From Lysobacter changpingensis (GTDB lineage Bacteria > Pseudomonadota > Gammaproteobacteria > Xanthomonadales > Xanthomonadaceae), in NCBI RefSeq assembly GCF_017308985.1, contig NZ_JADWPE010000006.1, forward strand, positions 62,001 to 126,000: a DNA stretch of 64,000 nt, in the 5' to 3' direction. The translations under genes and the position numbers were made by a program. Below are positions 12,930 to 45,111 of this stretch, piece after piece (within the stretch, counting starts at the first letter, position 1; each line of letters opens with the position of its first letter). Under the pieces are notes generated by a model that saw nothing but the letters and a program-made list of their open reading frames with translations, ran no database searches and had not been told where the DNA came from.

Positions 12930-14819
<1,890 letters not shown>

Positions 14820-14916
14820 CGGGGTTCGTCGGATGCGGTCCGGACGCGTGTCCGGGGGCGGAATTCTAGGTCAGGCCGGCCTCGCCCGCCGTCGAGAATG
14901 AACGCCCGGTGAAAGT

Positions 14917-14931
14917 TGGCACGGTTCCTGC
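14917..14931 (+). promoter_or_regulatory. Sigma-54 (RpoN) -24/-12 promoter
   Basis: TGGCACGGTTCCTGC has the invariant GG (14918-14919) and GC (14930-14931) separated by exactly 10 nt, and the full TGGCACG -24 element. Only the T before the -12 GC departs from the TTGCW consensus (CTGCG here). Transcription would begin near 14943. The only downstream feature on this strand is the terminator at 15019-15055. Confidence 0.75.
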
Positions 14932-14942
14932 GACATACCTCT

Positions 14943-15055
14943 TGCACCCAGCGGGGCAGGCGCTAAGCGCCGGCCGGAATTGGAACAGGGGCTGGCCAAG
15001 CGCTCGCAGGGGAAGCACGGGGGCCGAATGTCGGGGGACGTTCGGCCCCCTTTTT
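14943..15055 (+). ncRNA. Putative sigma-54-dependent small RNA, about 110 nt
   Basis: No protein gene lies on this strand between the RpoN promoter and a strong intrinsic terminator, so the natural product is an RNA of about 110 nt. It can fold a 5' hairpin at 14966-15004 (AGCGC and GGCC pairing with GGCC and GCGCT). This hairpin presents an 18-nt loop with two GGA motifs (GGAATTGGAACAGGGGCT). A single-stranded CAGGGGAAGCAC linker follows, then the terminator hairpin, whose tetraloop is GGGG. Exposed GGA motifs in loops are typical of CsrA/RsmA-sequestering RNAs, but G-rich loops could also pair with C-rich targets. The existence of the RNA is inferred from the promoter and terminator only. 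Confidence 0.6.
15019..15055 (+). terminator. Strong intrinsic terminator
   Basis: The stem GGGGGCCGAA (15019-15028) pairs with TTCGGCCCCC (15041-15050). It extends through a T-G wobble and GTC/GAC to a GGGG tetraloop, giving 14 base pairs in all, and is followed directly by TTTTTATTTG. It is the clearest rho-independent terminator in the window. Confidence 0.9.
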
Positions 15056-15083: not shown

Positions 15084-15111
15084 CGAAAGGCGCCCGTGAG
15101 GGCGCCTTTCG
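15084..15111. terminator. Perfect 12-bp hairpin, candidate bidirectional terminator
   Basis: CGAAAGGCGCCC (15084-15095), loop GTGA, then GGGCGCCTTTCG (15100-15111). The AAA/TTT runs at the stem base allow termination in either direction. It could stop read-through from the sRNA side or end the leftward lipoprotein transcript that finishes translation at 15345. Confidence 0.55.
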
Positions 15112-15152
15112 CGTCTGCGGCGGGCCGTAAAACCCGCCGGGATGGGCGCCGA

Positions 15153-15200
15153 CGCCCGATGGGGACGGAACAGGGGGGATCCGTGGTTCCTCATCGGGCG
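15153..15200. other. Long inverted repeat in the gene-free region
   Basis: CGCCCGATG (15153-15161) pairs perfectly with CATCGGGCG (15192-15200). The stem can extend inward through GGGA/TCCT-type pairing and an ACGGA/TCCGT pair. The hairpin of about 48 nt belongs to no gene. It may be part of the 3' untranslated region of the lipoprotein gene on the minus strand. Confidence 0.45.
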
Positions 15201-15344
15201 CCGACATGGAGCGTTCGGCTCTGGGGCCGGTTTTCCGAATTACGTCCAAAAGCGACGCAATCGGTCAATGACCGCAGATTGCCGTCAGTCGTCCCCGAGC
15301 GCAAGAGGAAAAATGTGACTGCGCCCGAGAGCTTGCGACCACAG

Positions 15345-43917: not shown

Positions 43918-45111
43918 CTACTTCATCGCCACCTGCGGCTGCGGCGCGGGCGCACCCATCGCGATCACCTTCGGCTGCACCGGCATTCCGGGGAAGAACA
44001 CCTTCTGCACGCCGTGGACGATCACCTTGTCCGTCGGCGCCAGGCCCGACTGCACGACACGCAGGCCGTCGATCACCGGACCGAGCTTCACGTCCTTGCG
44101 CGTGGCGGCGTTCTTCTCGCCCAGCACGTAGACGTACTTGCGGTCCTGGTCGGTGAGCACGGCCTTGTCGTCCACGAGCATCGCCTTGAACTTGCCGCTG
44201 CCCTGCAACTGGACGCGCGCGTACAGGCCCGGGGTGAAGATGCGGTCCGGGTTGCGCAGCACGGCGCGCGCGCGGATGGTGCCGGTGCTCGGATCGACCT
44301 GGTTGTCGACGAAGTCGACCGTGCCTTCATGCGGGTAGCCGCTCTCGCTGGCCAGCCCCACGCGCACCGGGTTCTGCGTCGCCGCGCGCTCGCCCTTGCG
44401 GGCCAGTTCCTGGTAGCGCAGGAAGCTCTGCTCGTCGGATTCGAAGTACACGTACACCGGATCCTGCGAGACGACGGTGGTCAGCAGCGTGGAATCGGCG
44501 CTGGCGAGGTTGCCCTCGGTGACCATCGCGCGACCGGCGCGGCCGTCGATCGGCGAACGCACGGTGGTGAACTGCAGGTCCAGGCGGGCGTTGTCGAGCG
44601 CGGCCTCGGCGGCGCGCACGGCGGCATCGCCCTGCGTGCTGGCGGCGCGACGCGTTTCGAACTCCTCGCGCGAGATCGCCTTGGCTTCGACCAGCGTCTG
44701 CGCGCGCTTGTCCTGCATCTGCGCGAGGCGGGCTTCGGCGCGGGCGCGTTCGAGGTCGGCTTCGGCCTGCGCGAGGCGGGCCTTGTACGGGCGCGGATCG
44801 ATGACGAAGAGCAGGTCGCCCTTCTTCACTTCCTGGCCTTCCTTGTAGGCGACCTGCTGGACGTACCCGGAGACGCGCGGGCGCAGTTCGACGGTTTCGA
44901 TGGCGGTGACGCGGCCGGTGAATTCATCCCAGCGGCTGACGTCCTTGTTGAGCACCTGCGCCACGCTGACTTCCGGCGGCGGCGGCATGCCGGCGCCCGG
45001 TTCGGCCTGGCTGCTGCAGGCGGTGGCGATGGCCGCCGCCAGCAGCGCTGCCGCCAGTGCGAGGGTGGGGATCCCGGTTCCGGACCGGGCGAGTGCTTTG
45101 CGTGGGGTCAT
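43918..45111 (-). CDS. RND efflux periplasmic adaptor (MexE/AcrA-like)
   Basis: A 397-residue membrane-fusion protein with a lipoprotein-type signal (LALAAALLAAAIATAC, then SSQAEP). Barrel-sandwich halves (TVELRPRVSGYVQQVAYKEGQEVKKGDLLFVIDPRPY and TTVRSPIDGRAGRAMV) flank an alpha-hairpin. A beta-barrel segment (NPVRVGLASESGYPHEGTVDFVDNQVD) and a membrane-proximal domain follow. It links the pump to the outer-membrane channel. Its start overlaps the preceding SDR stop by four bases. Confidence 0.94.
   Translation of the reverse strand: MTPRKALARSGTGIPTLALAAALLAAAIATACSSQAEPGAGMPPPPEVSVAQVLNKDVSRWDEFTGRVTAIETVELRPRVSGYVQQVAYKEGQEVKKGDLLFVIDPRPYKARLAQAEADLERARAEARLAQMQDKRAQTLVEAKAISREEFETRRAASTQGDAAVRAAEAALDNARLDLQFTTVRSPIDGRAGRAMVTEGNLASADSTLLTTVVSQDPVYVYFESDEQSFLRYQELARKGERAATQNPVRVGLASESGYPHEGTVDFVDNQVDPSTGTIRARAVLRNPDRIFTPGLYARVQLQGSGKFKAMLVDDKAVLTDQDRKYVYVLGEKNAATRKDVKLGPVIDGLRVVQSGLAPTDKVIVHGVQKVFFPGMPVQPKVIAMGAPAPQPQVAMK

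What the first reader, a model, noticed from the sequence alone, without database searches (positions are those of the whole stretch)
14917..15055. Sigma-54 promoter driving a terminator-delimited small RNA
TGGCACG-GTTC-CTGC has perfect GG-N10-GC spacing. A 14-bp terminator stem with TTTTT ends about 110 nt later, with no gene in between. The predicted RNA exposes several GGA/GGGG motifs in loops (18-nt loop at 14976-14993, linker at 15008-15013, tetraloop 15033-15036). RpoN-dependent sRNAs are few (for example CrcZ in Pseudomonas), and I know of none described at this locus. Loop GGA motifs raise the possibility of an RsmA/CsrA sponge; base-pairing to C-rich messages is the alternative.
Basis: partly seen in the sequence, partly recalled or inferred. 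Interest (0 to 1): 0.82.

Follow-up and report, generated by a model that had tools for sequence, protein, structure and literature searches.

The report
Sigma-54 small RNA and convergent partner
The small RNA seen here is the known but functionally unexplained RNA asX1; it sits behind a strongly conserved sigma-54 promoter and next to an apparently undescribed, oppositely read RNA hairpin whose loop is complementary to its own, so the two may form a small regulatory pair.

Summary
Window 14945-15055 (+) is the known sRNA family asX1 (Rfam RF02235, 93.8 bits, gathering 70), so 'none described at this locus' is wrong. The sigma-54 reading is strongly supported: TGGCA-N7-TGC begins 27-30 nt upstream of asX1 in 111 of 111 examined family genomes (11 of 122 hit genomes not fetched). 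Of 22 more distant asX1-like RNAs, 19 have the strict site and 3 a relaxed one.

New here: a second conserved hairpin, 'el2', lies within about 1 kb of asX1 in all 111. It covaries strongly. G-U asymmetry (78 vs 5) places it on the minus strand, with asX1 as positive control (136 vs 27). No Rfam family reaches its threshold there. Its loop GGAUYCCCCCUGUUCC is complementary to asX1's apical loop GGAACAGGGG.

Best explanation: asX1 is a sigma-54-dependent antagonist (sponge) of a convergent C-rich-loop RNA. Pairing, direction, el2 expression and targets are inferred. The RsmA-sponge idea is not excluded but weak: GGA is only mildly enriched and ANGGA is not, while CAGGGG is about fourfold enriched.

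The parts
14916..14931 (+). sigma-54 promoter: -24 TTGGCACG (14916-14923), -12 TGC (14929-14931), GG-N10-GC
   Evidence: TGGCA and TGC invariant in 71 of 71 loci, pattern present in 40 of 40 more
14945..15055 (+). asX1 sRNA (RF02235)
   Evidence: cmscan 93.8 bits, E 1e-12, positions 1-115/115; fold z -4.39
14982..14991 (+). asX1 apical-loop motif GGAACAGGGG, complementary to the el2 loop
   Evidence: 71 of 103 distinct asX1 sequences exact at these columns; direct repeat of el2's + strand
15019..15055 (+). asX1 intrinsic terminator (14-nt arms, GGGG loop, T5)
15148..15205 (-). el2 hairpin, convergent with asX1; no Rfam family at threshold
   Evidence: covariation: 13 of 13 pairs of helix 1 with changes on both sides, 93.9% of cells paired; minus strand by G-U asymmetry; cmsearch G000:C6:77132-77213:- = window 15132-15213; only sub-threshold Rfam overlaps: isrK on -, E 2.4, and sot2652 on +, E 5.5
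15167..15182 (-). el2 loop GGAUCCCCCCUGUUCC; core pattern single copy in the genome
15276..15304 (-). putative el2 promoter: TTGCGC (15304-15299) N17 CAATCT (15281-15276)
   Evidence: read; the block CTTGC-N-GCAAGCTA is conserved in an alignment of 45 genera, with exceptions; use untested
15085..15110 (-). GC-rich inverted repeat between the two RNAs, possible el2 terminator (GAAAGGCGCCC-TCAC-GGGCGCCTTTC)
   Evidence: function inferred
12930..14819 (-). mnmG, divergent neighbour
   Evidence: NCBIfam TIGR00136 880.5 bits, cut-off 524.85; synteny

Best explanation
asX1 is a sigma-54-dependent sRNA whose main partner is the convergent C-rich-loop RNA el2. When an enhancer-binding protein activates the sigma-54 promoter, asX1 accumulates, its apical loop (CAGGGG core) pairs with the el2 loop (CCCCUG core), and el2 is sequestered or cleaved. 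El2's own targets, probably G-rich ribosome-binding sites, are thereby released. Shown by comparison: asX1 identity, conserved sigma-54 site, conserved el2 hairpin on the opposite strand, conserved loop complementarity and linkage. Inferred: that el2 is transcribed as a separate RNA, that the loops pair in cells, that asX1 antagonises el2 rather than the reverse, and el2's targets.
For: (1) Sigma-54 site upstream of asX1 in 111 of 111 examined loci; of 22 asX1-like RNAs read from 33 model hits, 18 have the strict site, 3 a site with the A of TGGCA changed and GG-N10-GC kept, and the 22nd (L080) has a strict site that the script missed because the model hit starts inside the RNA. (2) el2 core beside asX1 in 110 of 111 fetched stretches and, after a longer fetch, about 1 kb away in the last. 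(3) el2 is a structured RNA: 149 two-sided-change cells against 53 shuffled, 0 of 500 shuffles reach it, slid controls fall from 83.9% to 33-45% paired (72 sequences chosen from 143). (4) Strand: A-C cells 78 against G-U 5 on +, opposite for the asX1 control, G-U 136 against A-C 27. (5) The longest perfect complementarity between asX1 and the el2 region falls at this loop-loop site in 40 of 45 genera, 9-12 nt. (6) GGAACAGGGG occurs only 9 times in the 4.06-Mb genome (reversed control 2) and two copies lie 185 bp apart here. (7) In other families the stem under the asX1-like loop is different, yet CAGGG is kept in all 22 RNAs read. (8) Asymmetry: el2 occurs where no asX1 match was found (G247 in L074; L083, L086, L088), while asX1 without el2 was not seen in 111. 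(9) In G282 asX1 and el2 lie together 5.6 kb from mnmG; in G225 asX1 is inverted while el2 keeps its orientation to mnmG.
Against: Per genus, the longest match is reached by at most 10 of 200 shuffles in only 27 of 45 genera (26 of them at the loop site), and whole-duplex energy beats shuffles (at most 2 of 50 as low) in only 11 of 45. In five genera the longest match lies elsewhere; in one (L101, loop GGAACGGGGG) the longest is 6 nt. el2's loop is nearly invariant, so no compensatory change between the two loops could be seen; L068's asX1 loop reads GATACAGGGG. In some out-of-family members the match is only 6 nt (CAGGGG). No expression evidence for el2 was found. No conserved enhancer-binding-protein site was visible upstream of the promoter (by eye). 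The el2 core was itself used to pick sequences for A1, so its invariance there is by construction (the 111-locus count is not). An exact-pattern RBS candidate target failed conservation.
Confidence: 0.48

Rival explanations
1. The reverse direction: asX1 is the active riboregulator (its G-rich loops pair with C-rich mRNA leaders) and el2 RNA is its antagonist or decoy.
For: asX1 carries more than one CAGGGG in 36 of 111, mean 1.23 against 0.26 in shuffles; asX1 is the RNA with reported expression.
Against: el2's core is kept across families where asX1's loop varies, and el2 exists where no asX1 match was found, which fits el2 as the primary regulator.
Confidence: 0.2
2. el2 is a cis-acting leader of mnmG (same strand, upstream) and asX1 modulates mnmG read-through by pairing with that leader.
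For: el2 is on mnmG's strand and upstream of it in nearly all loci seen; in G247, where no asX1 was found, el2's core lies about 40 bp from the mnmG start.
Against: By eye, a terminator-like hairpin separates el2 from mnmG in many genera; in G282 el2 lies with asX1 away from mnmG; mnmG appears to have its own -10-like box (my reading).
Confidence: 0.12
3. asX1 is an RsmA/CsrA-sequestering sRNA.
For: About four GGA per RNA, 3.95 against 2.98 in shuffles; GGA in the apical loop of most members (99 of 111 by pattern); 11 of 16 out-of-family relatives have GGA within the eight bases before CAGGG.
Against: ANGGA (CsrA core, recalled) is below shuffles, 0.27 against 0.46; the loop GGA is lost in genera g7, g13 and others while CAGGG stays. 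Xanthomonas has a described RsmA-sequestering RNA, RsmU, from a comEA 3' UTR (PMC7694677, abstract and passages). It would leave the linked complementary el2 unexplained.
Confidence: 0.1
4. The shared 10-mer is a coincidence of two G/C-rich elements that are both conserved for unrelated reasons, such as protein binding.
For: Weak per-genus shuffle statistics in 18 of 45 genera; el2 ultraconservation is not explained by asX1, which varies more.
Against: Both copies lie in apical loops at one locus, the site is the best match in 40 of 45 genera, and the 10-mer is rare in the genome.
Confidence: 0.1

Closest known systems
asX1 (Rfam RF02235, Xanthomonadaceae sRNA)
   Same: The RNA at 14945-15055 is a full-length member.
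   Different: The paper passages seen give no promoter class, partner RNA or mechanism; the original description (Schmidtke 2012, PMC3300014) is not held, so a sigma-54 remark there cannot be excluded. asX1-like RNAs here extend beyond the family.
CJnc190/CJnc180 of Campylobacter jejuni (PMC8687705; abstract, outline and one discussion section read)
   Same: A pair of RNAs from one locus on opposite strands; [quoted passage not shown]
   Different: CJnc180/190 are antisense RNAs with extensive complementarity; asX1 and el2 do not overlap and share a 6-12 nt loop match. No sigma-54 link is stated in what I read.
GlmY/GlmZ of enterobacteria (PMC7073468 seen only as a search listing with the start of its abstract; sigma-54 control recalled)
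   Same: A decoy sRNA, sigma-54-linked as recalled, that controls another sRNA.
   Different: GlmY acts as a decoy for the protein RapZ; here the two RNAs are unrelated in fold and complementary.
CrcZ of Pseudomonas (recalled)
   Same: RpoN-dependent sRNA acting as a decoy.
   Different: CrcZ titrates Hfq/Crc through A-rich motifs; asX1 has G-rich loops and a complementary RNA neighbour.
sX13 (RF02232)
   Same: Another conserved Xanthomonadaceae sRNA, present in this genome; C-rich loops (recalled).
   Different: On another contig; el2 is at another place, and no sX13 match is reported there.

Membership tests
asX1 (RF02235) | Score over the curated gathering threshold across the full model | tested here: met
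   93.8 bits against 70, positions 1-115 of 115; one match in the genome
asX1 (RF02235) | Expressed as an sRNA in this organism | not testable with these tools
   Expression reported in other species only
sigma-54-dependent promoter | -24/-12 elements with GG-N10-GC spacing at the right distance from the 5' end | tested here: met
   14916-14931; conserved in 111 of 111 examined
sigma-54-dependent promoter | rpoN present in the genome | tested here: met
   two rpoN in G000; 96 of 99 family genomes have one; the one near-complete genome without, G320, gave no asX1 in the genome-wide search (n = 1) and no match in its mnmG stretch to either model
sigma-54-dependent promoter | Enhancer-binding-protein site | tested here: inconclusive
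   By eye no conserved upstream site in 190 nt; only TGTGA-N6-TCACA-like (Clp/CRP-like, recalled) sites in g6 and L015
RsmA/CsrA-sequestering sRNA | Several conserved GGA (ANGGA) motifs in loops | tested here: inconclusive
   GGA mildly enriched, ANGGA not; loop GGA lost in several lineages while CAGGG is kept
RsmA/CsrA-sequestering sRNA | Binds RsmA | not testable with these tools
   none
sRNA antagonist (sponge) pair | Complementarity in exposed loops, conserved with linkage | tested here: met
   40 of 45 genera at the same site; el2 beside 111 of 111 asX1
sRNA antagonist (sponge) pair | One RNA lowers the activity or level of the other | not tested
   needs an experiment

The most novel reading that the evidence does not exclude
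asX1 and el2 form a two-RNA switch found in several families of the order: el2 is an undescribed family of C-rich-loop sRNAs with a nearly invariant 16-nt loop, and asX1 is its dedicated sigma-54-controlled antagonist, so that an enhancer-binding-protein signal is turned into release of el2's mRNA targets by loop-loop pairing between convergent genes.
Probability: 0.4. Interest if true: 0.78.

Novelty: new variant of a known kind. Interest (0 to 1): 0.62.

Why it matters
asX1 was found in 84 of 99 genomes of a family that includes plant-associated Xanthomonas and Xylella, but the paper passages seen here give it no mechanism. A conserved sigma-54 promoter ties it to a known signalling logic, and the adjacent complementary RNA gives a concrete partner to test. 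If the pair works as proposed, it explains asX1, adds an apparently undescribed RNA family, and offers a naturally linked, phylogenetically deep case of one sRNA controlled by another.

Tried and rejected
sX13 as asX1's partner: I fetched the genome's sX13 but did not test pairing, because a closer partner appeared. el2 as a plus-strand paralogue sharing asX1's motif: rejected by G-U asymmetry. el2 as a conserved small ORF (one f1 frame reads ..IPPVP..): rejected on inspection, since one-base indels inside it change the frame between relatives (for example L007, L028, L026). el2 as an enhancer-binding-protein site between two sigma-54 promoters in other families: set aside because the arms covary as base pairs. 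A membrane-protein gene as a trans target of el2 (GGAACAGGGG six bases before its ATG in this genome): not conserved; 27 of 35 genomes had the protein, 25 of the 27 loci gave a readable start region, 1 has the exact 10-mer (same genus) and 2 more have ACAGGGG. The other 6 of 7 genomic 10-mers outside the locus lay inside or beside long ORFs and were not pursued. el2 in the class: 4 of 321 genomes hit, all four in the window's own family, with stricter filters. The core pattern was absent from the genomes of families f2, f4 and f6-f10 in the listing. Whole-duplex energy: not significant in 34 of 45 genera. Rows dropped: of 33 hits of the asX1 model (E up to 5, 48 loci) I read 22 that lie in the asX1 place; 11 were not read (L146 twice, L152 twice, L087 twice, L091, L082, L147, L081, L145), though one search shows sigma-54 sites and CAGGGG in L081, L145, L146, L147 and L152. 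Literature: only two papers hold asX1 with Xanthomonas and sRNA; in the passages seen neither names RpoN or a partner. Listings showed no title or abstract start that joins them. Subscription papers and supplements were not searched.

Full report
OBSERVATION. The sigma-54-like element TTGGCACGGTTCCTGC is at 14916-14931 with GG-N10-GC spacing. The full pattern occurs once in the window (0.08 expected; 8 of 100 shuffles had one). The loose form TGGCAY-N6-TGC is at chance level (2 found, 1.44 expected). A 14-nt terminator stem with a GGGG loop and T5 ends at 15055. The RNA folds at -66.6 kcal/mol, z -4.39.

IDENTITY. Rfam gives asX1, RF02235, at 14945-15055, 93.8 bits against a gathering score of 70, full length; one match in the genome. 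It was found in 75 of 299 genomes of the order, all 75 in the window's family, of which the listing shows 79 genomes, and in 84 of 99 genomes of the family drawn afresh, 45 of 54 genera. The 14 control genomes had none. Expression is on record in X. campestris pv. raphani (PMC4652430, passage) and, at low level, in Xylella cells (PMC12189769, passages). The original description is not held, so I cannot say what it states about the promoter.

SIGMA-54. Searches give 122 genomes with asX1 (75 plus 47 new); I fetched and examined 111 (71, 40) and did not fetch 11. All 111 carry TGGCA-N7-TGC starting 27-30 nt upstream of the RNA; TGGCA and TGC are invariant in the 71 counted by column. The predicted sigma-54 start agrees with the Rfam 5' end within two bases. 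rpoN was found in 96 of 99 family genomes. Of the three without, G320 (99% complete) also gave no asX1 in the genome-wide search and no match to the asX1 or el2 model in its mnmG stretch; the other two are 82% and 86% complete and have an asX1-like RNA (G308) or asX1 (G346). Genus g91 (three genomes) has rpoN but no asX1 found, genome-wide or at mnmG, so rpoN does not require asX1. asX1 lies divergent from mnmG in 69 of 71 loci; the gene is mnmG by NCBIfam. No conserved activator site was seen in the 190 nt upstream (by eye).

A SECOND ELEMENT. Searching the fetched loci for the complement of the asX1 loop showed a second copy of the 10-mer beside asX1 in most of them. It belongs to a conserved hairpin, called el2 here, at window 15148-15205. 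Its core was found in 110 of 111 asX1 stretches; the last, G347, has it about 1 kb away. It lies downstream of asX1 except in G225, where asX1 is inverted and el2 is upstream. The pattern GGAACAGGGGGRATCC is present in 115 of 250 order genomes, once in each genome that has it in the listing, and its reversed control in none of the listed rows. The el2 model hit 4 of 321 class genomes, all in the window's family. In Rfam no family reaches its threshold there; below threshold, isrK overlaps one end on the minus strand (E 2.4, 14.6 of 50 bits) and sot2652 on the plus strand (E 5.5), both of chance size.

STRUCTURE AND STRAND OF EL2. On 72 diverse sequences chosen from 143 (A1) the 13-pair outer helix has 93.9% of cells paired and all 13 pairs show changes on both sides. 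Cells with two-sided change number 149 against 53 in shuffles (0 of 500), and slid controls drop to 33-45% paired. The inner 5-pair helix is poor (57.6%). These sequences were chosen by the loop core, so core invariance in A1 is by construction; the 111-locus count is independent of that choice. Wobble-type cells on the + strand are A-C in 78 and G-U in 5 cases (137 distinct sequences, 8 pairs), so the RNA is read from the minus strand. The same measure on asX1 gives G-U 136 and A-C 27, its known strand. Upstream on the minus strand are a CTTGC-N-GCAAGCTA block and a TGACC-N-GCGTCGC-N-GACG block, both conserved among 45 genera with exceptions; one of them is likely the promoter. In a few genera the second block reads as TTGACA-N-GACGTAAT (my reading).

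COMPLEMENTARITY. The el2 loop GGAUYCCCCCUGUUCC contains CCCCUGUUCC, the complement of asX1's GGAACAGGGG. Taking one locus per genus, the longest perfect match of asX1 to the 84-nt el2 region is at this site in 40 of 45 genera. Lengths over all 45 are 28 of 10 nt, 13 of 9, 2 of 11, 1 of 12 and 1 of 6. In 27 of 45 at most 10 of 200 shuffles reach the longest match (26 of these at the loop site); whole-duplex energy is as low in at most 2 of 50 shuffles in 11 of 45. GGAACAGGGG occurs 9 times in the 4.06-Mb genome, its reversed control 2 times, and two of the 9 are the pair here. Among 103 distinct asX1 sequences 71 have the exact 10-mer; two positions of its G run are invariant and one is only ever gapped; 109 of 111 keep CAGGG. 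asX1 carries 1.23 CAGGGG on average against 0.26-0.28 in shuffles, GGA 3.95 against 2.98, and ANGGA 0.27 against 0.46.

BEYOND THE RFAM FAMILY. A model of asX1 (R2, from 70 of 111 sequences) gave 33 hits at E up to 5 in 48 further loci, 18 of them below 0.01. I read 22 that lie in the asX1 place, 6 in the window's family and 16 outside, four of them weaker than 0.01 (L156 0.022, L151 0.038, L150 0.085, L079 0.87). All 22 keep CAGGG and have el2 0-252 nt downstream; 18 have the strict sigma-54 site, 3 keep GG-N10-GC with a changed base, and L080's strict site was missed by that script but is. In family f12 the stem under the loop is different, yet the loop stays ACAGGGG, GCAGGGG or TCAGGGG; in some the complement is only 6 nt. 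el2 occurs where no asX1 match was found in G247 and in L083, L086 and L088; a more diverged asX1 there cannot be excluded.

REARRANGEMENTS. In G282 asX1 and el2 lie together about 5.6 kb from mnmG. In G225 asX1 is inverted while el2 keeps its orientation to mnmG. So el2 does not depend on read-through from asX1, and the pair does not depend on mnmG.

MECHANISM. The best reading is that asX1 is a sigma-54-controlled antagonist of the el2 RNA. [quoted passage not shown] asX1/el2 differs in being non-overlapping, loop to loop, and sigma-54-linked. The RsmA-sponge idea is not excluded, since most members keep GGA, but its ANGGA form is not enriched and it does not explain el2; Xanthomonas has RsmU for that role (PMC7694677, abstract and passages). 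A computational study of the Xylella sigma-54 regulon searched intergenic regions upstream of annotated genes on their coding strand (PMC3224663, passages), a scope that could miss an unannotated sRNA.

LIMITS. No expression data for el2, no test of pairing, no activator and no el2 target were obtained; the one target candidate failed conservation.

Noticed in passing
L150, L151, L153-L158, L160-L163 and similar (families outside f1), about 220-280 bp to the right of el2: A second sigma-54-like promoter in front of a short protein (61 aa in L155: MDLSFDFEPVYHHHDLLIELG...) with no Pfam match.
   Followed up: partly
window about 15230-15285, minus strand, and the same place in 45 genera: A conserved dyad GCGTCGC-NTT-NNGACGY next to TGACC upstream of el2; it could be an RNA hairpin or an operator inside a promoter spacer.
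   Followed up: partly
G282 mnmG locus, L073 around 1211, minus strand: With asX1-el2 elsewhere, the slot beside mnmG holds another sigma-54-like promoter before a different reading frame starting MSLLHRTALAVALLAV.
   Followed up: no
g6 loci (L002-L008) and L015, just upstream of the asX1 sigma-54 site: A TGTGA-N6-TCACA-like palindrome (Clp/CRP-like, recalled) close to the -24 element.
   Followed up: no
window 44995-45091 (+): ARAGORN reports a tRNA-like gene with a four-base anticodon ggcc that Rfam does not list at gathering score.
   Followed up: no
G000:C3:837244 (L173): GGAACAGGGG lies six bases before the start of a membrane protein that resembles the Bax-inhibitor/YccA family (name recalled; no NCBIfam match at 1e-10); among 25 readable orthologue starts only the same-genus one keeps it.
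   Followed up: yes
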